Source of the DNA: Aurantiochytrium sp. KH105 | Taxonomy: Eukaryota > Sar > Bigyra > Thraustochytrida > Thraustochytriidae | Length of the DNA: 64,000 nt | Direction: 5' to 3' | NCBI GenBank assembly: GCA_003116975.1 | Contig: BGKB01000028.1 | Location: 186,001 to 250,000 of the forward strand | Shown: piece after piece, positions 2,905 to 18,154 of the stretch | Layout of the letters: each line of letters starts with the position of its first letter | Numbering within the stretch: the stretch's first letter is position 1 | The notes under the pieces: model-generated | Database searches by the model: none | What the model was told of the DNA's origin: nothing | Seen by the model: only the letters and a program-made list of their open reading frames with translations | Made by a program: the position numbers and the translations under genes

Positions 2905-5151
2905 TTACGATGAGGCTCGCCACGAAGCACCAGCACGACCACCGACAAGATTCCTAACGCCAATAGCATAGCTGCGGCCACCCAAGCTGGCTGCAGCAGA
3001 ACTCGGCACAGCCGCGTCATGAGCTCGCGTGCGGGCACGACGCTCTTGAAGCTCCCCCAGTTCCTCGGGTGTCAAACGCTTCCGATTATATGCGGTAGTT
3101 GCCTCGGTGAGCGCACTTCGGGCCTTGAGCTTCTGATCAAAGCCCGGTCGTACTGCTGGGCGCACCTTGAGGGTTTGAATATGGGTGGCCCGATCTTGTT
3201 TTTCGGTCTCTTGTTTATGCTTCGCCACAGTGCGGCGTTGCGTCGCAAGAGCAAGATCACGCGCTTGTCGCTCTTTGAGACTTACAGTGGCCTTGCGAAG
3301 CTCGTGCTCGCGCGCATCGCGCACAGCAGCTGCCTCGAAATTGCGCTGCCGATCACGTTCCGCCTCCCGCTGCAGCTTGAAGAGAGCGATGCGCTCCTTC
3401 TCGGCACGTCTCCGTTGCAAGTCTTCAGCTCTCCTCTCCCGTTCAGCGCGCTCTTCGGCTTCTTTGGCGGCATGTTCAGCGCGCCGCTCAGCGTCTCGTG
3501 CTGCTTTCCACTCTGCGACGGCACGACGGCGCTCCTTGCGTTCTTGCTCTAGCTCCTTTTCGCGTTGTTTGCGTTCGGCGACAATCTGCGCTGAGGCCTT
3601 GCCCTTGCCCTCCGCCCCAGTAGCGTTCCTGTTACCCAGATTAGGATTTGCTTGCTCTTGGTCTCTGGCAAACCCACTACTTGACGAAGCCGCACGCGAA
3701 GTTTTACTGTGAGTCTTGCTTGCTTTCCACTCGCGGACGACTCGCTTCTTTTCTTCCAATAGTGAGATGTAGTGTCCGTACCACCGCGCATGCTCTTGAA
3801 TTGCATCTTCGTCCTTGCCAGGTATTTCACTGCCAGCCTTTTCAAAGAGTCTTCCAATGGGTTTGGGGACCTCTGCACCTTTTGAACGAGCAAACTGAAT
3901 AAGGCTTGCGTCCGCGACTTTGAGACGCGACACGCAGCGCAAAAAGTCTGCGTGGTCGCGTCCATCCCAGTGCCCGCTGGAACCTCCCATTTCCGCGATT
4001 TCCTCCTCGATGGCATCAATGCGGGCCTTCAGGTCGGCGTGCTCGACCCGCGGACTCCTCCTCGAGGACTGTGACCGCGCAGAGGCAAGTGGGCTGCGAA
4101 CGGCGTTGATTTGGCGATCACGCGTCTTTTCCTCTGCCGCAAGTCGTTTCGAAGCGCGGTCTTGCTCTTCTTCAAGGTCAAAACGCGTGCTGAGATGCGC
4201 GAGCTCTTGTGTCAAGGCCTCCTCCTTGGCAACGAGCTTTTCAAAGACGGTACGCCGCGATGTTTTCACGGCATTGATGCAAGTTTCAGCATGATCCATT
4301 TGCTGCTCCACCGCGCGCAAATACGCGTCGCCCGCGCCCATCTCAGCAACAGTGTTGGCAAGACGCTCGACGGCCCATTTGGCCTTGTCGAGCTGATTGA
4401 AAAGGTCACGACGATCACTGTCCCGTTTGCGATCAAGATCGACCTCTTCTTTGACCAGATCAGCTGTTTCTTCCTCGAGGTGTCCGCGAGCCAAGCGAAG
4501 CCCTGCTTGTCGCTCACGGTCAAGGACCTGGCTCTGATGCGTGAGTTTTGTGAAGCGCTGCTTCCACTCAAAGACCTCCTGAAGAGCCTTTCGTCTGCGC
4601 TTGGCGGCTTCTGACGCAAGCTTGTACTTGAGGGCTTCCTCCCTTGCGGCCTCTGCGTCTACACGCGCAGCCTCCTCATCGTCGGCCTCGTCCTGCTCCT
4701 TTCGCTCGCCCTTTTCAGGAGAACCACTTTCTCGAGGCCTTGATCTCCTCCCAGGCCTCGGTTTTGACGACGCGCGACGGTGATGTGACGAGGTCTCGTT
4801 TGAGATTTCCGGACTGCCACTATTACTTTCTCGCTCGCGGGCATTGCGTGCGTGTTCCGCGTCATTTTCATGGCTACGCTGGGAGCGAAGATCTTCGGAC
4901 TCGCGTTGTTTCTCTTCCTCGGCGCGAGATCTTGTTGCAAGATGTCGCGGTCGGAGACGCGGCTGCGTAATCTTCGTGCCTTCCCATGCCTCGACCTCGC
5001 GCTCGAGGGCCTCGGAGCGGGCCTTGCTCAGGCTCTTGAGCCTGTCGAGCACAGCGAGCTTGGTCTCCACGTCCAGTCCCGGGTCGTCCAGCATTTTGCG
5101 AGCACATAGTTCACTCAGCGTCGGCACGCCGCTTCCGCGGGTATCCTTCAT
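2905..5151 (-). CDS. Coiled-coil protein similar to CCDC112
   Basis: 748 residues from the ATG at 5151 (begins MKDTRGSGVPTLSELC). The frame is open further up to 5667, but that part overlaps the divergent lectin gene and has shadow-like composition, so I reject it. Order: a charged, disordered stretch to about residue 190; coiled coil to about 350; then a segment with a GHWDGRDHADFL motif followed by HARWYGHYISLLEEKKRVV. A long K/R/E-rich helix comes next, and a tail near the C-terminus contains RPAVRPGFDQKLKARSALTE. The W-D-x-x-D-H-x-x-F-L element, the E-H-x-x-W-Y element and the basic tail recall CCDC112 and CCDC148, which in animals are linked to centriolar satellites and cilia. That fits a lineage with flagellated zoospores, but the function is inferred from family resemblance only. 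Confidence 0.75.
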   Translation of the reverse strand: MKDTRGSGVPTLSELCARKMLDDPGLDVETKLAVLDRLKSLSKARSEALEREVEAWEGTKITQPRLRPRHLATRSRAEEEKQRESEDLRSQRSHENDAEHARNARERESNSGSPEISNETSSHHRRASSKPRPGRRSRPRESGSPEKGERKEQDEADDEEAARVDAEAAREEALKYKLASEAAKRRRKALQEVFEWKQRFTKLTHQSQVLDRERQAGLRLARGHLEEETADLVKEEVDLDRKRDSDRRDLFNQLDKAKWAVERLANTVAEMGAGDAYLRAVEQQMDHAETCINAVKTSRRTVFEKLVAKEEALTQELAHLSTRFDLEEEQDRASKRLAAEEKTRDRQINAVRSPLASARSQSSRRSPRVEHADLKARIDAIEEEIAEMGGSSGHWDGRDHADFLRCVSRLKVADASLIQFARSKGAEVPKPIGRLFEKAGSEIPGKDEDAIQEHARWYGHYISLLEEKKRVVREWKASKTHSKTSRAASSSSGFARDQEQANPNLGNRNATGAEGKGKASAQIVAERKQREKELEQERKERRRAVAEWKAARDAERRAEHAAKEAEERAERERRAEDLQRRRAEKERIALFKLQREAERDRQRNFEAAAVRDAREHELRKATVSLKERQARDLALATQRRTVAKHKQETEKQDRATHIQTLKVRPAVRPGFDQKLKARSALTEATTAYNRKRLTPEELGELQERRARTRAHDAAVPSSAAASLGGRSYAIGVRNLVGGRAGASWRASS

Positions 5152-5503
5152 CCTCGTGAGCTGCGCCTGGCTCTGCTCCCGCCTCGCCTGCGTTCCCGCC
5201 GTGCGCGCAAGCCCTTCCTCGCGTCGCCCAATCGGGATCTGCCTTAGCGGCGGCGACCGTTTTGCGCATTCGCGTCTGGTAATATTGCAAGCTATCCAAG
5301 TATGCGGCCTGTACACTGCGCAGCCTGTACCAGACCAAGAAGCATTCGCGAACCACCTCGCCTTTCCAAACAAGACGAGGCAAACGAGACGAGACAAGAA
5401 CTCTGGACCAACGCAAACCCTCTCGGCTGCGCAAAGGGCTTTGCGCGTGCGCGCGCAGAAGCTCTTGCGCAAGGGTTTCTGCGGACGGCCTTGCGCTACG
5501 AGC
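5152..5503. promoter_or_regulatory. Shared divergent promoter, coiled-coil gene and lectin gene
   Basis: 352 bases separate the two start codons of divergently transcribed genes. No clear TATA box is seen. Right after the 5504 ATG, a GCA-type trinucleotide run (about 5549-5580) encodes an alanine tract. Confidence 0.45.
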
Positions 5504-8344
5504 ATGAGTGGCGCAGACAAGCCAAAGAGCTCTCTTGGAGGAGGAGATGCGGCAGCAGCAGCAGCAGGAGCAACAGCAGTTGCTGCTTCAAGAATGGGAC
5601 GCGCGTCCCGATACGGCGCAACGCCCAGGTCAGCGAAAGCGCTCCTGATGCTCGCTGTAGCGTGCATACTGAGTGCAACAGCAGTGGCAGGAACACAAGC
5701 ACAACTGCCGGATCACCTCGTGGTGACTTGGGACTTTGATGATGACCTCGACGGCTGGGCGCAGTCAACTTGGGAGGAAATGGGTGCGCAGGTCTACGCC
5801 GAGGGAGGCGAAATGCGCGGGAGAGTTCAACGGGCAGGCCAAGTGCCGCGTTTTGACTCCCCGCTTTTCCGCGCAAACGCCAGCGATAAACTCACCGTCG
5901 TCATGCGCGTCAAGTACGGAGGCCAACGCGAGCGGGGAGCTCGCGTCGACGTTCGTCTCTTGGGGAGCGAGTCCACAGTCGAAGACTTTCAGTCGCTACC
6001 GCGTTCCTTTGGCGGCGGAGCTGCAACAATTGCGAGCGTTCCCTTTGATGAGGAGGTCTTTCCGGACGGCCGATATGCCATCATCAAGGCTCCAATTCAC
6101 GAACATGTAAATGGGACGGTCGTCCAGCTCCGCATCTTCCCAATCCAGTTCGATCCCGAAAATACCATTGTAGAGCTCTGGGGCACCTTTGATATTGACT
6201 GGATCCGCCTCGTCGAGGCACCCACCATCACCAAGGTTGAGGGTTGCTTGAACAAGTATTTTGATGAAGCACCAGAGCCCCTACATCCGTCTCTGATGAG
6301 CCAGCGATCCGAAGACGGCGAATACGTCTTTCGTGGCGGCAGCGAAGACGGCGTCAACAATGTCACCATCAAAGCTATCGCGAGCAATGGCGATGGCCAT
6401 CTATTACACAAGTCAAGTTTTCTGCAAGAAAGCCCGGAGAGCCCCTACGCCACGACCTTCAATTGCCCTCGGCAGGGACCGCAGACAAGAATTCGCATCA
6501 CTGGACGAAACTTGGGAGATTATGCTACGATAGCAGCCCCCATTGAGGCCACGTTGGATGCTCAGGTCGCTGAGGAAGCAAATGCGCCAGGCGGAACCTT
6601 GCAGAAATGGGACACTGTGACAATCAATGGTCAAATATGCGCGGATGTCGTCATGCTCGAAGTAGAACGAATGATCGAGTGTACGCTTCCATCAACAGCT
6701 GCAACAAATGGCCTGGACCGCGTACCCGTGACGGTGCAGCAACCTGATTACAGGTGTCTTGAAGATAGCAAACCCTATTTGTCGTACATGGTGCCGGCGC
6801 CTCAGCCACTCGCGGCGCCTGAGGTTGCGAATCTTGGTTCAAGAGGTCTCGACCTCACCTGGAGTGCCCCCTCTGACCCCTGGGACGCCGCGACGGTCAC
6901 CGGATATGTTGTTCTCGTATATGAAGAGCCCCTCGATCCTTTCTTTAAGGACAACGCCCCCGGTCGTCTGCCTGTGAACAGGACGAACCGGTTCACGCTG
7001 ATCCGTGAAGATGTGCTGGGAAATGTGACATCGACCTCGATAGTCGGCCTTGGCCCAGAACGAAACTACAGGTTTGCTTTGCAGGCCCTCGTCGAGGATC
7101 CTCGTGAAGCATCATGCTGGAAAGTCGACCTGTATGGGCGTCGCCAGCTCTTGACAGGGGCGCTGAGAAGTGTGAGTTCTGCACTCACTGCCGTCGAGAC
7201 AACGCTTTCTCTCGATGTACATTTCCCCTCCTTTCCCGCTTCTTCGACGCTCGAGGTCGGTGCGACGGACGCTCGAACACTTTTAGGACCATCGCGCAAC
7301 GAAGGCGGCGAGGGTCACTACGGCCTTCGCCTCGTAGGGAGCGCGCAAATTGCCAATTGTAATGAGACGTCGCTGTGCTGCGACCACGCCTCAGATGGCT
7401 CCTGTGAGACAATCTGCGTATCCACTGCAACCCAAGTGGGAGTTGATCCAGACTATCTGAACCTGGACGCAGATCGAGAGGTGCCTGGCAACAGCGCTGA
7501 GAATGGGCAAGAGCTCTATGTTGGGCCTCTTGCAGGCATTCCTGGTGGTGATCTCCCGGATGGCCCGTTCCCCGCGTGTGGTCCTGCTCTACGCCTCACA
7601 CCGTCGCGAGCACGTGCGTCCGGAGCAGCATGGTATCCGCGCAAGATGAACGTTCGAGAGGGGTTCGTCACGGAATTCACCTTGCGGCTCAGCAATCCGT
7701 CTTTGGTCTGTACAGTAATGGATGACGAGGCGACGCAATGTCGCAGTCGCGGCGCAGACGGTCTTGCGTTCGTAATCCAGAACGAAGCGTCGAGCGCTTT
7801 GGGTCATGGGGGCATGAACCTTGGCTTTGGCGGTATTTCAAATGCTCTTGCGATTGAATTTGATACCTTTCACAATCCCGAGAAACGGGATCCCTATGAA
7901 AACCACATTGCCGTCTTCGCCACTTCTATGAAAGGGGACGTCATGGACTCGGGCCATCATATGTCTCTTGCCTCTACAACTGCCGTGCCCGACCTCACGC
8001 AAGGCTCGCACCGCATCCGCATCGAATATTCGCCTCGCATGCGCGAGGACGACATTCTTGATCCGGCCTTTTTCGCCACCGCGCAGACAGCGACTTTGAT
8101 GGCAAGTCAAAATGCCTGGGGGTGGGAAATGGGTTCCCTCAAAATTTTCGTCAACGATCTTCATCGCCCCGTGCTTGTGACGGTTCTGAACTTGGGAGCT
8201 ACAGTTGACCTCGACAGCGGACGTGCATGGGTGGGATTCACTGCAGCGACAGGGGACGGATTCTGGCAAGCACACGAGCTCTTGAATTGGACCTTTCAAT
8301 CGTCACGTTTGCACCCATTCAATCTTGAGGCGGTAGTCGAGTAA
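5504..8344 (+). CDS. Secreted multidomain L-type lectin with Ig-like and FN3 domains
   Basis: 946 residues. The ATG at 5504 is followed by an alanine-rich run, then a second ATG at 5594 (MGRASRYG) that starts a cleaner signal peptide (hydrophobic core ALLMLAVACILSATAVAG). The true start may be 5594. After the signal come: a beta-rich carbohydrate-module-like part starting WDFDDDLDGWAQ (to about residue 235); an IPT/TIG-like part (about 300-420, RIRITGRNLGDY and later MIECTLPS); a fibronectin type III domain (about 430-535); and a C-terminal legume-type lectin domain (about 700-935). The lectin domain shows DGLAFVIQNE, AIEFDTFHN, SHRIRIEY and AWVGFTAATGDG, all core strands of L-type lectins. 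Several NxT/NxS sites suggest glycosylation. There is no C-terminal membrane anchor, so it should be secreted or lumenal. Sugar binding is inferred from the fold. Confidence 0.85.
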   Translation: MSGADKPKSSLGGGDAAAAAAGATAVAASRMGRASRYGATPRSAKALLMLAVACILSATAVAGTQAQLPDHLVVTWDFDDDLDGWAQSTWEEMGAQVYAEGGEMRGRVQRAGQVPRFDSPLFRANASDKLTVVMRVKYGGQRERGARVDVRLLGSESTVEDFQSLPRSFGGGAATIASVPFDEEVFPDGRYAIIKAPIHEHVNGTVVQLRIFPIQFDPENTIVELWGTFDIDWIRLVEAPTITKVEGCLNKYFDEAPEPLHPSLMSQRSEDGEYVFRGGSEDGVNNVTIKAIASNGDGHLLHKSSFLQESPESPYATTFNCPRQGPQTRIRITGRNLGDYATIAAPIEATLDAQVAEEANAPGGTLQKWDTVTINGQICADVVMLEVERMIECTLPSTAATNGLDRVPVTVQQPDYRCLEDSKPYLSYMVPAPQPLAAPEVANLGSRGLDLTWSAPSDPWDAATVTGYVVLVYEEPLDPFFKDNAPGRLPVNRTNRFTLIREDVLGNVTSTSIVGLGPERNYRFALQALVEDPREASCWKVDLYGRRQLLTGALRSVSSALTAVETTLSLDVHFPSFPASSTLEVGATDARTLLGPSRNEGGEGHYGLRLVGSAQIANCNETSLCCDHASDGSCETICVSTATQVGVDPDYLNLDADREVPGNSAENGQELYVGPLAGIPGGDLPDGPFPACGPALRLTPSRARASGAAWYPRKMNVREGFVTEFTLRLSNPSLVCTVMDDEATQCRSRGADGLAFVIQNEASSALGHGGMNLGFGGISNALAIEFDTFHNPEKRDPYENHIAVFATSMKGDVMDSGHHMSLASTTAVPDLTQGSHRIRIEYSPRMREDDILDPAFFATAQTATLMASQNAWGWEMGSLKIFVNDLHRPVLVTVLNLGATVDLDSGRAWVGFTAATGDGFWQAHELLNWTFQSSRLHPFNLEAVVE

Positions 8345-8987
8345 AGGAAAGTAGATTCAAGCAACCTTATAGCCCTGCAGCAATCCCAATCAATGTCCAT
8401 GCGAGCGCGCGCGCAAGGATCTGAGTCACACCAAGTCAGGCAGAATATGAGTTACATCAAGGTCAGGCGAAACGCTCATTACAAACGATGATGCCCGAAT
8501 GACCCTGCTAAGCCATGATACGTGCGAATCGCTGCTTGCCCGAGCTTAGATCTTTTCTTCGTCCAGATTTGATGCAGACAGCGAAGAAACGAATTTGAAA
8601 GGTCATCGGTGGACAAGTAGCCTTGATCGTCCCCTGATCGCTCAGTTCCTCCACCTTCGGGGCGAGACCTTGGAATTCCTTTTGAGCTTGCGAATATTGG
8701 TCCTGCTCACGCGATCCGTCGCAGGTGCCGCAATATGTTTTGGCACGGAGAGTAGATCATTCGAAGCGCCCAATGTAAATCGTTGCTTAGAGTGATAAAC
8801 TTATAGACGGTGTTTCTTTGCTCTTGCAAACAAAATTCTTGCAAACTCGCGGCCCTTCGAGGTTTCGGCGGCCTTCCACTCGCTAGGTCTACGTCTCCCT
8901 CGCCACAATAGCTCGGGGACTTGTCTGCTCACTTGCTACTCGCTTGCGGCTTTCGTGCTGTGCTGCACTGGGATTGGTTGGGCTGAG
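8345..8987. other. Gap right of the lectin gene; possible remnant exon on minus strand
   Basis: No whole gene is visible. On the minus strand the frame 8508-8756 is open and reads like protein (TYCGTCDGSREQ, then VEELSDQGTIKATCPP), but it has no start codon. It could be a downstream exon or a relic of the RING-CH-like gene to its right. The rest shows nothing recognisable. Confidence 0.3.
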
Positions 8988-9386
8988 CTATGTCTTGGCG
9001 GTTTTGCAATTTGCTTCGTGGTTCGCAAAACCTAGGCAGGCAACCTGGACCTTGGAGATGGACCCCGTGCAGGCGCACGGAGCAATGAGAGGGTTGTCTT
9101 TTGTACATTCGTCGTCGCCGCAAATGCGGCACTCATCGACGCTGCCAGTGCTTCCAGGCGATCCCCTCGCTCGTCCCGCATCGTTCTCAGCAGTCAGCAG
9201 GGGCCGCAGAAGACTGCTCTCGTGCAGGCAAGCAGGATCGTTAGGGTCTGCGCCTGCTTCAAGGTCATCGACCAGCAGACGACTGTCTCGGTGAGAGGGC
9301 AACGCATTCGTGTCTTCGGCCTCGAAGACCTCAATGGCCTCCTGATGACCTACGTTTGTCTTTGCAGCACTGTCGTCAGCGTCGAG
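8988..9386 (-). pseudogene. RING-CH (RINGv) domain frame, degenerate or unspliced
   Basis: A minus-strand frame open from 9386 to a stop at 8988 encodes an acidic stretch (EAIEVFEAEDTN, LLVDDLEAGADP) and then CRICGDDECTKDN, PLIAPCACTGSISK and VQVACL. This is the first half of a RING-CH zinc finger, as in MARCH-type membrane E3 ligases: C-x2-C, then P-L-I-x-P-C-x-C-T-G-S, then V-x-x-x-C-L. The histidine that normally follows the V is Q here. The last C-x2-C pair is absent: after the C-L the frame reads GFANHEANCKTAKT and stops. No ATG precedes the frame. It is either an exon of a spliced gene whose other exons I cannot place, or a decaying copy. It lies downstream of and on the same strand as the repeat-tail membrane protein at 9916-12339. 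Confidence 0.5.
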
Positions 9387-9915
9387 CTATCGCTCTCGTC
9401 GCTACAGCATACAGACTCGAGGTCGTGTCCCAGTTCAAGATCGTCTGATCCTGCTGCTGATGGCGCCCTGCGCTCCGGAACAGCTCCACCTCGTCTCGCT
9501 TGGCCCCCTGTTTGGCCTCCGCCGCCCTCGTCGCGCTGCCGTCCGCCTCGCCGTGGCGCAATACTCGCGGCATCCGTCGCGCCGAATTGCTCGCTTTCGA
9601 TCTTCTCGAGCCTCCCGGACCCGACGCAGAACAGTGGGAATCGGCGACGGGCATAGAGTTGATTTTTGTAAAACGTAGGGGTGCCACACGGCACTTGGCT
9701 TCGGGGTCTTTAGACGGGCTATTCTTCGCCGGTGCCAATGTGCGTCCCCGTCGCTGAAGATGAAAGATATGTATAGCCGTGGAAAACGGAGACAAGTTGA
9801 GGAGGTTTGCAAGCGCGTTTCTTGCTCGGATGGATAGCGGACGGTCCGGCCTTCGCGAACGCTCTTCATCAGAATCCATTGTTGCAAACTCAATCAAGAC
9901 ATCTCGGACTCCTCC
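9387..9915 (-). other. In-frame continuation beyond the stop of the repeat-tail gene
   Basis: After the TGA at 9918-9916 the same minus frame stays open to 9376. It keeps reading repeat sequence (IEFATMDSDEERSRRPDRP) for about 30 codons, then leaves the repeat. A second minus frame (stop at 9350) reads acidic and serine-rich sequence (DDLELGHDLESVCCSDESD) that also looks like coding DNA. This may be the former 3' end of the upstream gene, cut off by a stop arising in the Glu/Gly codon tract, or exons of the RING-CH-like gene. Confidence 0.4.
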
Positions 9916-11340
9916 TCATTCTTCTTCTTCTTCTTCTTCTTCTTCTTCCTCATGATCGGCAACAGTGTGAGTGTTCAAGTCGTAATGCATCGCGACGTTC
10001 TCGCTCTCGGAAGTAGATACAGAGCTGACTCTGGTCGCTACTTCGTCGCTCGTGTCCGCACGCGTCCTGCCGGCAGCGGTGTGAGCTGGAGGATACGTGG
10101 CCGTGAATAAGCCAGACAGTTTGAAGCGGTCCGCGAGTGACCTTCGTGTGCCAAAGGAAAGTGGACGATCTGGCTGTCCTTGACTCTGCTGTGGACCGTT
10201 CGAAGTCTCGCTTTGCAATGAAATGTGCCCATGAGGAGGCACGGTGAACGAAACTGCGCCATCTTCATCACTCGACGCCGCATCCGAATCCCTCCTCCGC
10301 AACGTTTCCGTGAAGCTTGCTCGGATGGAAAGCGGACGGTCCGGCCTTCGCGGACGCTCTTCATCAGAATCCATTGTTGCAAATTCATCAGAATCCATTG
10401 TTGCAAATTCAATCGAGACATCTTGGACTCCTCCTTCTCCTCCTCCTCCTCCTCCTCCTTCTTCTTCTTCTTCTTCCTCATGATCGGCAACAGTGTGAGT
10501 GTTCAAGTCGTAATGCATCGCGACGTTCTCGCTCTCGGAAGTAGATACAGAGCTGACTCTGGTCGCTACTTCGTCGCTCGTGTCCGCACGTGTCTTGCCG
10601 GCAGCGGTATGAGCTGGAGGATACGTGGCCGTGAATAAGCCAGACAGTTTGAAGCGGTCCGCGAGCGACCTTCGTGTGCCAAAGGAAAGTGGACGATCTG
10701 GCTGTCCTTGACTCTGCTGTGGACTGCTCGAAGTCTCGCTTTGCAATGAAATGTGCCCACGAGGAGGCACGGTGAACGAAACTGCGCCATCTTCATCACT
10801 CGACGCCGCATCCGAATCCCTCCTCCGCAACGTTTCCGTAAAGCTTGCTCGGATGGAAAGCGGACGGTCCGGCCTTCGCGGACGCTCTTCATCAGAATCC
10901 ATTGTTGCAAATTCAATCGAGACATCTTGGACTCCTCCTTCTCCTCCTCCTCCTCCTCCTCCTTCTTCTTCCTCATGATCGGCAACAGTGTGAGTGTTCA
11001 AGTCGTAATGCATCGCGACGTTCTCGCTCTCGGAAGTAGATACAGAGCTGACTCTGGTCGCTACTTCGTCGCTCGTGTCCGCACGCGTCCTGCCGGCAGC
11101 GGTGTGAGCTGGAGGGTGCGTGGCCGTGAATAAGCCAGACAGGCTGAAGCGGTCCGCGAGCGACCTTCGTGTGCCAAAGGAACGTGGACGATCCGGCTGT
11201 CCTTGACTCTGCTGTGGACCGCTCGAAGTCTCGCTTTGCAATGAAATGTGCCCACGAGGAGCCACGGTGAACGAAACTGCGCCATCTTCATCACTCGACG
11301 CCGCATCCGAATCCCTCCTCCGCAACGTTTCCGTGAAGGA
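9824..11340 (-). repeat. Three tandem coding repeats of about 0.5 kb
   Basis: Three units start at about 9824, 10317 and 10845 and are nearly identical base for base. They differ mainly in the length of the GAG/GGA (Glu/Gly) codon tract at 9921-9955, 10429-10478 and 10934-10976. The middle unit carries an extra short internal duplication (FATMDSDE twice). The near identity implies recent unequal exchange or gene conversion. Confidence 0.9.
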
Positions 11341-12339
11341 GCTCTCGGCACTTTCATCATCTTCAATCGAACAACTGCCATCCGTTTCTCGATCACCTGT
11401 AGAATCCGTGTCCGAGCCCGAATCAGCTTCAATATCCATTTCTCGATCACGTGTAGAATTCGTGTCCGAGCCCGAATCAGCTTCAAGACTCGTGTCTTGT
11501 GCAGTCGAATCATCGTCACTGGCGACCTCGAGCTCCCTTTGATTAGCGTAATTCTGTTCAAGGCCAGAAGATCTTGCATTCGATGAAAGTCGGCTCGCGG
11601 ATGACCTCTTTGTGGAATTCGATCGCCGTCGATCTGATCTTTGTTGACCCTGCTGTGAAGCACTGGGAACCTCTGTCGACATCGCACCGCGCCAAGGAGG
11701 CACTGAATGCGTGACCGGGGGATCTTTGGCCGCCGCTTCAAAATCCACATCGAGGTCTGCATCTCCTACTGAGGCTTCTGGGGAGGAGTGATTGCTGGTT
11801 TTGTGAGTCGAGACAGAATGGCGGTCCGCGTCACAATCTGTTCGAAAGCTCGTACGTTGGGCGGTTCGAGAGCCTTTGCTATTGCTTCTCTTATCCTTTG
11901 TCTTCCTTTCGAGCGACTTATTGCGAGGGTCTTTACCTGGCAATGTTGATTGCAGTGAATCTTTCTTGCATGGATTACAGCACATAAAGATGGCCCCCAC
12001 GACAAGCGCAAGACCGCAAACACCAACAATAGCTGCTACTAGTGCAATCCACGGAGCTTGTGTTGGCGCAGGCGGGATTTCGCAGCAGCAATATTTCTCT
12101 GTCCATGCCGCAAAGCAGAAATTCCAGTCCCACGCCACACCAGAATACGAGCAGAGACTGCATTCGACCTTCTCTGGGCCTCCTTCAGCTTGCACAGCAT
12201 GATCTGTCGTCTGATGGCACGATGACCACCAGCATTCTGACGGGCAAGCCTCTTCCGCATAACTACATTGCGCCGCTGCTCGAGCCAACGTGTGCGCCGC
12301 TATGACAGAAGCGACAACGTACAGTCTCGGGCCGATCAT
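9916..12339 (-). CDS. Single-pass membrane protein, Cys-rich ectodomain, repeat tail
   Basis: 807 residues from the ATG at 12339. Signal peptide (about 1-23, ends TLARAAAQ), then an ectodomain of about 65 residues with ten cysteines. The core reads CSLCSYSGVAWDWNFC and ends TEKYCCC. A short proline linker and one membrane helix follow (about 96-118, IALVAAIVGVCGLALVV), then a CCNPCKK juxtamembrane site that could be palmitoylated. The long cytoplasmic tail is Ser/Asp/Glu-rich and disordered. Its last part is three near-identical tandem units of about 165 residues, each with SFTETLRRRDSDAASSDEDG, SFGTRRSLADRF, SGLFTATYPPAHTAAG, a Glu/Gly run and IEFATMDSDEERPRRPDRPL. Many SDxE-type sites suggest CK2 phosphorylation. 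The function is unknown. The layout suggests a surface receptor or adhesion protein, which is inference. Confidence 0.8.
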   Translation of the reverse strand: MIGPRLYVVASVIAAHTLARAAAQCSYAEEACPSECWWSSCHQTTDHAVQAEGGPEKVECSLCSYSGVAWDWNFCFAAWTEKYCCCEIPPAPTQAPWIALVAAIVGVCGLALVVGAIFMCCNPCKKDSLQSTLPGKDPRNKSLERKTKDKRSNSKGSRTAQRTSFRTDCDADRHSVSTHKTSNHSSPEASVGDADLDVDFEAAAKDPPVTHSVPPWRGAMSTEVPSASQQGQQRSDRRRSNSTKRSSASRLSSNARSSGLEQNYANQRELEVASDDDSTAQDTSLEADSGSDTNSTRDREMDIEADSGSDTDSTGDRETDGSCSIEDDESAESSFTETLRRRDSDAASSDEDGAVSFTVAPRGHISLQSETSSGPQQSQGQPDRPRSFGTRRSLADRFSLSGLFTATHPPAHTAAGRTRADTSDEVATRVSSVSTSESENVAMHYDLNTHTVADHEEEEGGGGGGGEGGVQDVSIEFATMDSDEERPRRPDRPLSIRASFTETLRRRDSDAASSDEDGAVSFTVPPRGHISLQSETSSSPQQSQGQPDRPLSFGTRRSLADRFKLSGLFTATYPPAHTAAGKTRADTSDEVATRVSSVSTSESENVAMHYDLNTHTVADHEEEEEEEGGGGGGGEGGVQDVSIEFATMDSDEFATMDSDEERPRRPDRPLSIRASFTETLRRRDSDAASSDEDGAVSFTVPPHGHISLQSETSNGPQQSQGQPDRPLSFGTRRSLADRFKLSGLFTATYPPAHTAAGRTRADTSDEVATRVSSVSTSESENVAMHYDLNTHTVADHEEEEEEEEEEE

Positions 12340-13735
12340 GGCCTGCTAGAAAAGGAAGGAGTTGCGCCTAGGTGTTACGGGTCTGCAAGTATGGCTGCGA
12401 GTCGTCACGACTCATCCAAGCACTCCCTCACCAATTCCTCAAGCCTGCCTGCCTGCCTGCCCGTCATGCCTAAAAAATGTAAGAGAAAGTATCCCTTTTC
12501 TTCTTCTCGCTTGGTATTGGCACGGTGTGCAAACGGCCCGCGCGCAGCGAGGCAAGAAAATCACTAAACTTCCTGGACCGCAAATTTTGGCGTCCTTTTT
12601 CATCAGCGCTGCACCGACGCACGCGCGTAGACCATTCAAGACCTAACACGCGTGCGTGTCTCGCGCCCAGTCCCCACTCGTAGTCGCTGCCGAGCGGGCA
12701 CAGCAGCTGCACGGCCAGCAGTGAAAGCGGAAGCGGGCAGCAGCGGACGGCCAGCAGCGGCACGGCAGCTTGCCTGGTGTGTGGGTGGCCACGGTGGCTG
12801 GCACGCGCTGCACGCGCTGCACGCGCTGCACAGCAGCCAGTCCCCCTGCCTAGCTGCGAGCCGGCTCCAGCTGCGGCCGATGATCAAGCACGCCTGAACC
12901 GGCTCGACTTGTCCAAAGAGACACTCGGAGGTGCCCACGTACAAAGTATTGCTCTGGCCTGCTGCCGTGAGAGGCCCGAGAAGGGATTTCTTGAACGACA
13001 AGGGAATGTGGGCGGGGGGGGGGGGGGGATGGGGGATATCTGTGCGGCCGGTCTACGTCGCAAGCCAGCCATTCCCATCATCCATCATTCCTAGCACCAT
13101 GATTTGATTTGTAGTATTGAGAAATGTCACCGACGGAGGTATCAGCAGCCAGCCAAAAAAAAAATTTAAGTTAGAAAGTAATCGAACGATCGATGGATCG
13201 AATTGCCGATGGACACCGCGCTGCGGTGCAGATCATAATCATGCAAGTGCTTAAACTCCGTGACAAGGAGAGCTACGAATGCCAAGAAAATGTTTGACTG
13301 GCAACACGCCGGTGTCCAGCAGCAGCGAGTGCAGAGAGCTGGAGGCCTCGCGCGGCCTTCAATGGCAGTGGCGAGAGTGCAAGAAGAAGAAGATAAATGT
13401 ATTGTTAAACGTTCTCCGCGGTCTCGCGCACGTGAAAAGAATCCCTCGGCCCTAATTGTAGATTTGGCGCTGGACTCAGCTGGATAGCAAGCACTTACTG
13501 TTGGGCGCTACTTAACAGTTTTTCTGCAATGACAATGAGAAAAGGACTTTTTTTGAAGTTAGAGAGACTTGACTGGTCGTAAAGAGGTTTGTCGTACCTC
13601 CGCGAAGCAAACATGTAAGAGGCTTCTCACTTCAAGCCTCGACACCCGCACAGCCATGCTTCGATTACAGCAAATCTCGAACGTTGTGACGGAGGGCAAC
13701 ACCATCTTCGAGACTCGGGGGCTTTGGAAGCAACG
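12340..13735. promoter_or_regulatory. Divergent intergenic region with simple repeats
   Basis: No gene is convincing. It lies between two genes pointing away from each other. It holds GCCT repeats at 12447-12463, three tandem copies of a CACGCGCTG unit at about 12803-12830, a G homopolymer at about 13012-13027 and an A run at 13146-13156. Confidence 0.4.
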
Positions 13736-14650
13736 ATGGGCGCGAATGCACCATGGCGCGTCATCAGAGGTGCAGCGGCAAGCTTTGTCGCCGCGTTGCT
13801 TGTCATTCCATCTATTACGACCACTTCAGCCGCCTGCAGTCACTCGAAGAGCGCCTGCCTCTCTGATTGATTGGCAGGCGGACAGGCTGTCATACATCAG
13901 CAGAGCATGCTGAGCAAGTATATGGTGGCTCTGACAAGTTAGTTGCGGACGATGCATATACTCTGGTCTTGTATGGGAGTGGAACTACTGTGGCAAGGCA
14001 TGGCAAGACAAGTATTGCTGTTGCAAGCGTCCTACGCCTGCGCCTACGCCATTTCCAACACCAAAGCCAACGCCCCGGCCCTTCTCAACTTCTGGCGACT
14101 TTTGCGGCAAGTGAGTCCTCGTTCACTATGGGCCTGCGAGGGGAAGAGCATCCTACGTAGGGGGTGTGGAACTAACGACCGGTCACGAATATACAACTGA
14201 GGTTGAGGAGATTATGAGCGAGTCCGTCTCAAAGGGCGGGTCTTTCTCTTTGGATCTTGGTCACGTTGGCGGCAAATACGAGACTTCGACGACGTTGACA
14301 AGCAGCGTAGCAAAAGGTATCGCGTCCACTACAGCTTCATATCTCACGGAATACACCGAATACGGATGCGAGCAAACGTGCTCGCCTAGAACGACGAGCA
14401 GCTAAGCTCAACATACCAGAAGAGCGGCCTGGGAAGGCGGCGGTCGGCCGCTCCTTCGCCTGGAGAGCGGGGAGCTAACGTACGGAAGAGTGGCCTCGTT
14501 TTCTGCGCGTCCGCGCCGCCATGTCCAGACTGTGGCACCAGAATTTGTGGGGCGACAAGATCAACAACGATGACGACCAACGAGAAAGTGACGGTGGCGG
14601 CGACGGCAAGAAGGGCCCAGCGGCGCGTCCCGTGCGACGATGTAGGTAAA
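13736..14650 (+). pseudogene. Decayed relative of the Cys-module membrane protein
   Basis: The ATG at 13736 opens a signal peptide (ASFVAALLVIPSITTTSAA) followed by CSHSKSACLSD. Further on come CHTSAEHAEQVYGGSDK, CGRCIYSGLVWEWNYC and AWQDKYCCCK. The order and spacing match the ectodomain of the gene at 9916-12339, which points the opposite way. A Pro/Thr linker follows (PTPAPTPFPTPKPTPRP), then at about 14170-14400 a beta-rich Ser/Thr segment (TTGHEYTTEVEEI, SVSKGGSFSLDLGHVGG, YETSTTLTSSVAKG) ending YGCEQTC. A further cysteine-rich scrap lies at about 14480-14580. The copy is not open from end to end: it is broken in several places, even allowing for a small intron near a GTGAGT site. Unlike its relative it has no membrane helix here. 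The beta-rich segment is unassigned. A pore-forming-type beta fold is one weak possibility, so I treat the locus as a fossil. Confidence 0.6.
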
Positions 14651-15214
14651 GATAACTTGATGGACAGGAAAGAAAAGTGAGCGATTTAATGATGGATGGC
14701 ACATTATTCATATGAAGCGCGAGAGTAAGAGATCAAGCGAGCAGGCAAGCGAGCGAGTCAGTGAGTGAGCGTCCGAACAACCAACCCCCTCCCCCACCCC
14801 CCATCCCTCGGATATCTCTCCTTCCTTGGTGCAAACTCTCACTCCCGCTTTCCCACTCCCCCTTCTTGCGCTCTAGACGACTAAATCCACGCAACAACGC
14901 AGAGAGCGGATGTAGATGATGGACACGCACGAGTCCAATTTGATTGAATCACACGCTCGGGCTCTCTGGCGGGGTGGGGCCACGGGTGCCCCCCTCCCTC
15001 CCCATCTGCTGACGATAACGAACGCTGACGGCGATTGATTGGGGGTCAGAACGGAAGTTCCTGCACTTGGGACGACATGGCTGAGAGCGGTGTCCTTTTT
15101 TCCCTTTTTCTTTTTCTTTTCCCCCTCGTCCTTTACCAGCTGATTCTTGGACCTGGCAGACCGCGATTCGCGCGAAGAAAACCCGCGTCGCGCGCGTCGG
15201 CGAGCGAGGCGGCC
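14651..15214. promoter_or_regulatory. Upstream region of the PH-RCC1 gene, likely 5'UTR intron end
   Basis: No gene seen. Four-base repeats of the GAGC/GAGT type lie at 14735-14770. A strong pyrimidine tract at 15090-15140 ends TTTACCAG, which looks like a 3' splice site 75 bases before the chosen ATG at 15215. A spliced 5' leader is therefore likely. Confidence 0.45.
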
Positions 15215-18154
15215 ATGAGCGCGCACGAGGATGGAGGCGGCGGCGCGCGGAAAGCGAGGACGCGGGCGCCGACGACCTCGACGAGGACAGAAGAGGGTTT
15301 TCTGAACAAGCAGGGCGGAGGCCGAGCCAAGTCGTGGAGACGCAAGTACTTTGTGCTCAGCGATGGCCTGCTCATGTACTTTGACGAGAAGCCCACGCTA
15401 GAGAACGGACTCGCGCAAAGGCCGCGAGGGATCGTCGAGCTCTCGGCGTTTTCCGTGGTACGCGCGTCTCGATCTAGCAAAGCATTCTCTTTCGAGCTTG
15501 TCGCTCGCCCGCACGTCTTAGTTCTGCGCGGCGACTCGAAACAGGAGGCCGCCAAATGGGAAACGGCGATCTGCGAGGCGATCGAGGACGCCAAACACTC
15601 GCGCAGCGACCGGAGGGTAGAGTGTCGCCGCGGATGGCTCACAAAGCGCGCTGTGCACAGCCATCGTAACTGGCGAAAACGATTCTTCGTGCTTCGCAAT
15701 GGACGTCTCGCGTACTACGAGACCAAGCCCACGACGCCGACAGACCGTCCAAAGGGTATGTTCGAGATCACTGCTAACGCTGTCGTACGGGAGTCGAATG
15801 CTACGCTGGGATGGGGTAAGCGCAACGCCTTCAGCCTCGAGACAGGACCCGAGAACAACCGACAGGTTCTTCAGCTTAGCGCCGCGAGCGCCGACGAGCG
15901 CGCCGCGTGGGTCTGGGTCCTGCATGTTGCTATTGTGCGCAAATGCGGCATCCAAACCGACGAAGCCGTCAAGGTTGGCGTCTGGCTTCATGAGCACGCT
16001 CTTGGCAAGTACGCCAGGAGTGTAGTCCTCGATGCCGGTTTCTCAAATTTCGAGCATATCAAGCGCATGAGCGAAACCGACATGAAGGCTCTTTTTCGAC
16101 AAGCAAGCTTTACACTCAATACTGCGCGAAAATTTCAAAATGCAGCTCGCGAGCTATGCGCGCTTTCCTCCGATCAAATGGACATGCTTGGCGCGCCCCT
16201 CGGCGTTGGCGGGATAGAGAGCCTTCGGAATATTGCAGATCTCGATGACGATGATGTTGCGGCCATTGTCGGTGTCGATAGGACGCACGCAAGTCAAAGA
16301 CGCTTTGGCGACGATGATCACGATGATGATAACGATGATGGAGACGAATGCGGTGCTGATCAAGAACACGATCAAGTCGATGAACGTACGATGTCAGTCA
16401 GTTTGGAGGAGCATGACTCAGAAGAAACGGGATCGGATTCAAGGTTCACATCTACCCCACAGAATAAAGGGAAAATGAACGCCAATGACGATGTGGCGGC
16501 TGCTGCGACGGAGAGCGGTGCCTCTTCTGCAGAGAAAGGTATTTCGAATCGATCATCGTCTTCATTGTCGCAACTGTCTGGAAAACCGGGTTTGTGGCGG
16601 CGACTCAGCGCCCCGCGAAAGCAGGAGAGCCTTGCTCCCGAGCGCCGTCTTTACACGTGGGGTGACGACTCGCAATGGCAGCTTGGAATTGGTTCACCTT
16701 CCTTGGGAGGCACAAGTGCCAACCCGGTGCATGTCCAATCTTTAAAGAAGAAGACGGAGCCTCACATGGTTGCCGCCGGAGACACGTGCATGGCAGTGAT
16801 CACAGAGCGCGAGGGTCAAATCTTTATGTGGGGCTCCGGACCCCTTGGTCTCAAGCCTAAATCGAGTAGCAATCGCCCCTTCCTCATTTCAAGTCTACGC
16901 AAAGTACGTATGGTCCACGTGAGCATTGGCAAGGAGCACGTTGGCGCTGTGAGCTTTGCGGGCGATTTGTACACGTGGGGCACTGGCAGGTACGGTCAAC
17001 TGGGACTTGGAGATTCCCCGACAGAAACCCGCGAGCCAATCATGGTCGATGGTGTTGGCAGCGCGAGCGGTGTCCCTGTAACGTCGGTGACCTGCAGTGA
17101 TGCTCATACGGTAGTACTTACAGAAAACGATTGTGTCTTTACCATGGGGAAAGGCAGACACGGACGCCTCGGTCTCGGTGATCAAGACAATCGCTTCGTT
17201 CCAACGCGTGTGGAGAGCCTCAGCGGCTTCAAGGTCAACAAGATTGCGCTTGGAGATCGTTTTTCTCTGGCCGTGACAACCAGCGGTATGGCCTGCTTCG
17301 TGTGGGGACGCTTTGGCTCGGAGCCGGTCTCGCTTGTCCCTATACGCCTTCAGCCATTCGATGAATTTGATCGGCCAATATTGGATGTGGCTGCCGCTCG
17401 TGAAATGGCCATTTTTCTGGTGGGGAGCTCTCCAGGGCGGGATACGTTTCAAAGTCTCTCGCCTCGGAAGAGCGATGGCCGTGATCAAGCGCATGGCAGC
17501 ATGCCAGACGAAGACGCGGTTGAGTCTTCGGTATTCACAATGGGGCCTGCTGATGCACCCCTTGGAATTGAAGTGATGGAACCACTGACAGAACCTACTA
17601 TCGTGAAGGCCCTGGAGAATTACAATGTTGTACAAGTGTCTTGCAGCGGATCGCATGCAGCTGCTTTATGTCAAGACGGACGTCTCTTGACATGGGGCTC
17701 CGACGAGCGTGGCGCGCTCGGCTCGGGGTACTTTGTATCAACGCAAACCCCCGTCAGCGCCCGGTGTGTCAATGCGTTTCGCTACAAGTCCGTCGTGTGT
17801 GGTGGGGAGTACACTGCTGCAATCGGAGAATATGACGAAAGCTGTATTCCAAGCAAAGCTGCTGGCGTGGGGGCCACAATAGCGGGCACGCTCAAACCTA
17901 GAATGCGAGGCCCGAGAACACCCGAGGACGAAAAGATCGCCTCCAAGATTTCTGAAATAACGCAGCTACTTCGAGATGTCCAGAGCGAACCGCCACCGCT
18001 TGTCGACAACGACGGTTTTCCTCTGCCCATGGGCTCGAGACGCTTCAATGATACTTGGCTAGAGCACAAAGATCCCAAAACCGGCAGACCGTATTACGAG
18101 AACATGGACACGAGGGAGGTTCAATGGCACCCTCCGGCATCTCGCGCAGCATAG
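15215..18154 (+). CDS. PH-PH-SAM-RCC1-WW multidomain protein
   Basis: 979 residues from the ATG at 15215 (MSAHEDGGGGARK). The frame is open upstream to an ATG at 15077, but that stretch is a pyrimidine tract with a likely splice acceptor. Domains in order: PH1 at about 25-125 (EEGFLNKQGG, SWRRKYFVLSDGLLMYF); PH2 at about 135-245 (RRGWLTKRAVHSHRNWRKRF, ending in the expected W); a SAM-like domain at about 250-317 (VGVWLHEHALGKYARSV). An acidic, serine-rich linker to about 470 precedes an RCC1 propeller at about 475-875 with YTWGDDSQWQLGIG, LYTWGTGRYGQLGLGD, FTMGKGRHGRLGLGD and LTWGSDERGALGSG. A C-terminal WW domain (about 945-975) reads WLEHKDPKTGRPYYENMDT and ends QWHPP. PH domains point to phosphoinositide membranes, RCC1 repeats to GTPase exchange or scaffolding, and WW to proline motifs. 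A membrane-linked signalling scaffold is the best inference. Confidence 0.85.
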   Translation: MSAHEDGGGGARKARTRAPTTSTRTEEGFLNKQGGGRAKSWRRKYFVLSDGLLMYFDEKPTLENGLAQRPRGIVELSAFSVVRASRSSKAFSFELVARPHVLVLRGDSKQEAAKWETAICEAIEDAKHSRSDRRVECRRGWLTKRAVHSHRNWRKRFFVLRNGRLAYYETKPTTPTDRPKGMFEITANAVVRESNATLGWGKRNAFSLETGPENNRQVLQLSAASADERAAWVWVLHVAIVRKCGIQTDEAVKVGVWLHEHALGKYARSVVLDAGFSNFEHIKRMSETDMKALFRQASFTLNTARKFQNAARELCALSSDQMDMLGAPLGVGGIESLRNIADLDDDDVAAIVGVDRTHASQRRFGDDDHDDDNDDGDECGADQEHDQVDERTMSVSLEEHDSEETGSDSRFTSTPQNKGKMNANDDVAAAATESGASSAEKGISNRSSSSLSQLSGKPGLWRRLSAPRKQESLAPERRLYTWGDDSQWQLGIGSPSLGGTSANPVHVQSLKKKTEPHMVAAGDTCMAVITEREGQIFMWGSGPLGLKPKSSSNRPFLISSLRKVRMVHVSIGKEHVGAVSFAGDLYTWGTGRYGQLGLGDSPTETREPIMVDGVGSASGVPVTSVTCSDAHTVVLTENDCVFTMGKGRHGRLGLGDQDNRFVPTRVESLSGFKVNKIALGDRFSLAVTTSGMACFVWGRFGSEPVSLVPIRLQPFDEFDRPILDVAAAREMAIFLVGSSPGRDTFQSLSPRKSDGRDQAHGSMPDEDAVESSVFTMGPADAPLGIEVMEPLTEPTIVKALENYNVVQVSCSGSHAAALCQDGRLLTWGSDERGALGSGYFVSTQTPVSARCVNAFRYKSVVCGGEYTAAIGEYDESCIPSKAAGVGATIAGTLKPRMRGPRTPEDEKIASKISEITQLLRDVQSEPPPLVDNDGFPLPMGSRRFNDTWLEHKDPKTGRPYYENMDTREVQWHPPASRAA

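What the first reader, a model, noticed from the sequence alone, without database searches (positions are those of the whole stretch)
9916..14650. A new-looking ten-cysteine ectodomain shared by two divergent genes
The ectodomain of the 9916-12339 protein and the decayed gene at 13736 share C-x2-C-x-Y-S-G-x2-W-x-W-N-(F/Y)-C-x3-W-x2-K-Y-C-C-C after a signal peptide. The rest differs: one has a membrane helix and long phospho-rich tail, the other a Pro/Thr linker and a beta-rich part. The module is therefore mobile between architectures and may mark an undescribed surface family. I recognise no known domain with this CCC ending.
Basis: partly seen in the sequence, partly recalled or inferred. 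Interest (0 to 1): 0.75.

Follow-up and report, generated by a model that had tools for sequence, protein, structure and literature searches.

The report
Orphan ten-cysteine head on surface proteins
In a single-celled eukaryote's genome, an unrecognised ten-cysteine protein head sits on three kinds of predicted cell-surface protein, and the two genes in this window are one copied DNA segment in which one gene is largely intact and the other is broken.

Summary
Protein searches of the host genome (76 Mb) find the same ten-cysteine frame in three architectures. A: head, TM, long Ser/Thr/acidic tail. B: head, Pro linker, unclassified S/T-rich domain, TM. C: head, PT linker, TM, short tail. All 9 modules that read unbroken, some of them alleles, keep ten cysteines. 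The 7 heads scanned match no Pfam family and their profile matches no PDB sequence at E<=10. No viral or prokaryotic relative was found; eukaryotic proteomes could not be searched. The one intact copy of five seen (C144) has a C-terminal TM; the window copy is frameshifted and cut off at 14387. A and B were not shuffled together here: window 9034-14387 is one inserted segment related to an A/B cluster on another contig, and its flanks lie 18-19 bp apart in two paralogous sites. Best reading: a small, fast-turning-over family of type I surface proteins with a disulfide head. Function and fold are inferred; AlphaFold gave no usable model.

The parts
9034..14387 (.). Inserted segment holding the A/B gene pair, related to the cluster on contig C144 (presumed other haplotype split over C271 and C203)
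   Evidence: Homology to C144/C271 starts and homology to C144/C203 stops at these bases; the flanks are 18-19 bp apart in C40 and C64
9916..12339 (-). Gene A: signal peptide, ten-Cys head, TM helix, ~680-residue Ser/Thr/acidic tail with repeats spaced 165 and 176 residues
   Evidence: Open frame of 807 aa from Met; TM at residues 100-118; repeats; the frame ends at a TGA that the last repeat reads across
12268..12339 (-). Presumed signal peptide of A
   Evidence: Hydrophobic N terminus before the first Cys, similar in paralogues; no signal-peptide predictor run
12082..12267 (-). Ten-cysteine module of A (62 aa)
   Evidence: Ten Cys shared with 8 other unbroken modules; alignment A2 of 7 heads
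11986..12042 (-). TM helix of A
   Evidence: Kyte-Doolittle 19-residue mean 2.77
9898..11220 (-). Tail repeats of A: three copies of a 300-nt unit, 94-95% identical to the reference copy; the last runs past the stop at 9916
   Evidence: the repeat finder
13736..14387 (+). Pseudogene B: signal peptide, ten-Cys head, Pro linker, first part of an unclassified S/T-rich domain; frame broken in the head, one stop after the linker, 3' end absent
   Evidence: DNA alignment with the intact B2 on C144
13835..14024 (+). Remnant of the ten-Cys module in B (spread over frames)
8620..9033 (+). Left flank of the insertion, homologous to C40 and C64 (86-88%)
14388..14703 (+). Right flank of the insertion, homologous to a stretch at the 5' end of an LRR open frame on C40 and to C64 (76%)

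Best explanation
The module is the extracellular, disulfide-stabilised head of a small family of single-pass (type I) surface proteins, known so far from this one genome. Shown here: the ten-cysteine frame, its conservation while other residues change, the three architectures, and that the window pair is one segment inserted into a site seen without it in paralogous DNA, with gene B cut short at its end. Inferred: the head is secreted and oxidised, and in the members with a Pro/Thr stalk is held away from the membrane. It binds a ligand or a neighbour. Type A passes the contact to a disordered, phosphorylatable cytosolic tail (S/T 24%, D/E 19%, an RRDS site in each of three repeats). Type B is a divergently transcribed partner with a second extracellular domain. 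The family turns over by tandem duplication, segment copying and decay.
For: Own-genome protein searches: 18 matches with the A head, 15 of them in family loci at E<0.01; the C head adds one gene and the B head no further convincing locus. 9 of 9 unbroken modules have ten Cys. Chance that the amino-acid differences miss all ten Cys: 0.002 (A vs B), 0.009 (C tandem pair), 0.0005 (B vs C); these pairs are not independent. A vs B heads: dN 0.30 with dS saturated, i.e. constraint. A TM helix after the head in 9 of 10 sequences scanned; the exception, C29b, is frame-broken. The divergent A/B arrangement recurs in the window, on C144 and, inverted, on C271. Insertion. C144 matches C271 and C203 at 89-98% over about 29 kb.
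Against: No expression, localisation or ligand data; no signal-peptide or topology predictor was run. AlphaFold models unusable. dN/dS near 1 between the C tandem genes (0.96, CI 0.69-1.31) and between the C29a and C39a alleles (1.12, CI 0.50-3.75) also fits weak constraint. Of five B copies seen only one (C144 B2) reads intact, so B may be dispensable. Of five A copies, C144 A2 has a stop in the head and the C271 A2 frame ends at 130 aa; the window A stops short of its paralogues' C terminus.
Confidence: 0.6

Rival explanations
1. The module is a very diverged member of a known disulfide family (EGF, WAP, defensin-like, PSI-like and so on) that profile HMMs miss, so it is a familiar fold in disguise.
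For: Small Cys-rich folds diverge beyond HMM reach; the C-x-W and C-x2-C spacings recall several families (recalled, from no call). Structure prediction failed, so fold identity is open.
Against: 0 of 7 heads match any of 24,736 Pfam models at E<=10; the profile gives 0 PDB sequences at E<=10; 2 heads (window A, L021) have no NCBIfam match near a cut-off (best 14.6 bits against 412) and none below E 2.7 in PHROGs.
Confidence: 0.35
2. Decaying lineage-specific genes under little constraint: tandem and segmental copies of an orphan gene, kept open by chance, without a present role.
For: 4 of 5 B copies seen are broken, 2 of 5 A copies are broken or cut short, and C29b is frameshifted. C tandem genes dN/dS 0.96. 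Window A stops inside its repeat tail.
Against: Ten Cys kept in 9 of 9 unbroken modules. A1 alleles outside the head dN/dS 0.48 (CI 0.29-0.72); B2 alleles from YSGL onward 0.36 (CI 0.20-0.66), although the C203 allele is frameshifted upstream.
Confidence: 0.2
3. The B-type second domain is a beta-pore-forming (aerolysin-like) domain, making B a membrane-tethered relative of pore-formers.
For: Alternating Ser/Thr-rich stretches recall such domains (recalled from memory only, no call).
Against: No Pfam match for the domain, only one PDB sequence at E 0.43, a phospholipase D, no viral relative and one plasmid match at E 10, no usable model.
Confidence: 0.08

Closest known systems
Small disulfide-rich ectodomains on type I membrane proteins in protists (a kind, not a family; recalled)
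   Same: Signal peptide, Cys-rich head, Pro/Thr stalk in some members, one TM, cytosolic tail; multigene with pseudogenes
   Different: The cysteine frame with WN[FY]C and terminal YCCC has no match in Pfam (7 heads), the PDB profile search or NCBIfam (2 heads)
EGF, WAP and defensin-like domains
   Same: Short, Cys-rich, extracellular
   Different: No Pfam HMM match in 7 of 7 heads; ten Cys with a CCC triplet
Giardia Cys-rich surface families such as VSPs (titles and abstract starts seen in the listing; their architecture recalled)
   Same: Cys-rich ectodomain plus one TM, multigene
   Different: A single head rather than repeated motifs, few copies, long Ser/Thr/acidic tail in type A

Membership tests
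EGF / WAP / defensin-like domain | Match to the family's profile HMM | tested here: not met
   0 families for all 7 heads scanned at E<=10 in Pfam-A
EGF / WAP / defensin-like domain | Family disulfide topology and fold | tested here: inconclusive
   AlphaFold mean pLDDT 46.5 with a two-row alignment
Any family with a solved structure | Sequence-profile match to a PDB chain | tested here: not met
   0 distinct PDB sequences at E<=10 with the 7-head profile
Type I single-pass surface protein | N-terminal signal peptide and one TM helix with the head outside | tested here: inconclusive
   TM after the head in 9 of 10 sequences scanned by hydropathy; hydrophobic N terminus seen, but no signal-peptide, topology or localisation test
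Family spread over stramenopiles | Copies in related eukaryotic genomes | not testable with these tools
   No eukaryotic collection besides the own genome; no relative in the viral and prokaryote scans
Aerolysin-like beta-pore-forming domain (B second domain) | Profile HMM or PDB sequence match | tested here: not met
   No such match in Pfam or PDB sequences
Aerolysin-like beta-pore-forming domain (B second domain) | Fold | tested here: inconclusive
   95-aa piece only, mean pLDDT 37.4

The most novel reading that the evidence does not exclude
A and B are a linked, divergently transcribed pair of polymorphic surface recognition proteins, built on a new disulfide fold and acting as a self/non-self or ligand-receptor pair in a protist, with new specificities made by tandem duplication, tail-repeat change and segment copying to new sites.
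Probability: 0.08. Interest if true: 0.65.

Novelty: new member of a known kind. Interest (0 to 1): 0.35.

Why it matters
It adds an unclassified disulfide module with a clear sequence signature, seen in three natural architectures, to the surface-protein heads of non-model protists. The insertion shows how a linked surface-gene pair can be copied to a new place with one partner broken. The motif is ready for searching other eukaryotes.

Tried and rejected
B second-domain search: 11 matches. 3 are B copies. The other 8 (L030-L037, E 0.008-3.8) look alike when read, and Pfam on one of them, L030, gave TIR, NPHP3 and NACHT-type domains. Taken as chance matches.

L024, L025, L026, L051 and L052: weak, and without the cysteine frame when read; L051 matches by its PT linker. 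C43 (E 8.84) was not read. All dropped.

Viral and prokaryotic scans: alignment query, 24 viral stretches matched a pattern, 0 confirmed. Bait pattern WN[FY]C...YCCC: 26 viral and 72 genome stretches. The module HMM over these 98 gave 8 hits at E<=10, best 0.00097 without correction for preselection. The alignments I viewed, five whole and one cut, cover the bait half and lack the first six cysteines. Rejected.

Structure prediction of the head and of a 95-aa open piece of B, window sequences only: mean pLDDT 46.5 and 37.4; no fold search was run on such models. Tail of A: matches above chance only in A copies. Weak Pfam matches to the A and B proteins all lie under their curated cut-offs, including a PT-repeat match in L012 (E 1.1e-4). 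Literature: four searches, listings only, nothing on this module in them; no paper was opened.

Host identity: a PfaA (PUFA synthase) search found genes at up to 930 bits, below the cut-off of 1010; the same family also rings below the cut-off in 11 of 14 control genomes. It suits a labyrinthulomycete but does not settle it. The rRNA family search gave no answer twice.

Full report
OBSERVATION. Gene A is an open frame of 807 aa from its Met, on the minus strand, 12339-9916. Gene B starts at 13736 on the plus strand and is broken.

THE FAMILY IN ITS OWN GENOME. The window lies in a 76.0-Mb, 367-contig assembly, taken as eukaryotic from its size and genes. The A head finds 18 matches; 15 at E<0.01 fall in family loci and 3 (L024-L026) look like noise. 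A C-type head adds one more gene, on C29, and a B head finds no further convincing locus. These searches report lower bounds. Three architectures appear. A: head, with or without a PT stalk, TM, long tail (window; C271:4314; C144:64065; a short frame at C271:1311; a broken copy at C144:67136). B: head, Pro linker, S/T-rich and Cys-containing domain, TM, short tail (intact at C144:68819, 423-aa frame, 384 aa from its Met; broken in the window, on C203, at C144:65838 and at C271:2729). C: head, PT linker, TM, short Ser-rich tail (two tandem genes on C29 and two on C39; the contigs match at 77-93% over most of 10 kb and are probably alleles; C29b is frameshifted). So there are fewer distinct loci than sequences.

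CONSTRAINT. The shared frame is C-x(6-8)-C-x3-C-x-W-x(2-3)-C ... C-x2-C ... WN[FY]C ... YCCC. One search lists 9 modules that read unbroken; all 9 have ten Cys. Five broken heads (window B, C203 B2, C144 B1, C271 B1, C144 A2) were left out of that count. Differences avoid the ten cysteines more than chance allows in three pairs tested (0.009, 0.002, 0.0005; not independent). A and B heads differ with dN 0.30 and saturated dS. A1 alleles outside the head have dN/dS 0.48 (CI 0.29-0.72); in the head they show 5 non-synonymous and 1 synonymous change (1.29, CI 0.13-2.29, uninformative). The C tandem pair has 0.96 (CI 0.69-1.31) and the C29a/C39a alleles 1.12 (CI 0.50-3.75), which fits weak constraint or diversification.

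THE INSERTION. Window 9034-14387 matches the A/B cluster on C144 (A1-, B1+ broken, A2- broken, B2+ intact) and what I take as its other haplotype, split between C271 and C203 at this locus. Outside these bases the window does not match the cluster, while C144 goes on matching C271 on the left and C203 on the right. The window flanks 8620-9033 and 14388-14703 lie 18-19 bp apart in C40 and C64, which are 94.7% identical to each other over 9.2 kb. So the pair sits in the window's locus as one inserted segment. It is not a straight copy: C144 holds two A and two B genes in 8.1 kb (61356-69418), and the window one of each in 5.35 kb, its left part matching the A1 side and its head and B part matching best the A2-B2 side. 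That suggests a copy that recombined between repeats, or a cluster that grew after the copy was made. The direction, from cluster to window, is inferred from the right end falling inside B. No target-site duplication is visible in the printed junctions, so I favour a repair or template-switch type event over a transposon; this is inference. Compared with the intact B2, the window B also carries small length changes in the head and one stop after the linker.

WHAT IT IS NOT. No Pfam family in 7 of 7 heads scanned at E<=10 (two of the nine unbroken heads were not scanned), none in the PDB profile search, and no NCBIfam or PHROGs match of weight for two heads. B's second domain has no Pfam match, only one PDB sequence at E 0.43, and no viral or plasmid relative. 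EGF, WAP and defensin-like membership is not met at sequence level; the fold is open because the AlphaFold models were poor.

HOW IT MOST LIKELY WORKS (inferred). An oxidised head outside the cell, on a Pro/Thr stalk in some members, binds a ligand or a neighbour. Window A carries a 679-residue tail with 24% S/T and 19% D/E and an RRDS site in each of three repeats, which suggests kinase-regulated scaffolding. B is a linked partner with an extra extracellular domain. The family is in turnover: duplications, decay and one segment insertion are visible.

VERDICT. A real domain, unclassified in the libraries searched, in a small family; ordinary in kind (orphan Cys-rich surface proteins are common in protists, recalled). 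The limits are the missing eukaryotic collections and the missing structure.

Noticed in passing
L030-L037 (C27, C284, C15, C297, C131, C70, C329, C17): Eight large, similar open frames; the one tested (L030) has TIR, NPHP3/NACHT-like and TANC1-like winged-helix matches, an NLR-like layout in a protist.
   Followed up: partly
window 9916-9918 and 9376-9915: Gene A stops at a TGA after a poly-Glu tract, but the tail repeat and a stretch like the paralogues' C terminus go on in the same frame beyond it.
   Followed up: partly
window 4784-8344: Neighbouring 1186-aa open frame with a legume-lectin-like domain and a weak fn3 match, a possible secreted or surface adhesin.
   Followed up: no
window 15029-18154: Open frame with two PH domains, RCC1 repeats and a WW domain right of the insertion.
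   Followed up: no
C72/C155, C290/C61 (L158-L160): PfaA-like parts in separate open frames, each found on two contigs with nearly equal scores; suggests an assembly holding both haplotypes.
   Followed up: partly
L161 4941-9689 and L162: The paralogous empty site adjoins a 1583-aa LRR open frame on C40; the window keeps only a 316-bp match near its 5' end.
   Followed up: partly
L157 2520-6689: A BK/Slowpoke-like calcium-activated potassium channel gene lies near the A/B cluster on C144.
   Followed up: no
window 5000-18200 on C28: No allelic contig was found for this stretch outside the insert and the short flanks, unlike other loci of this assembly.
   Followed up: no
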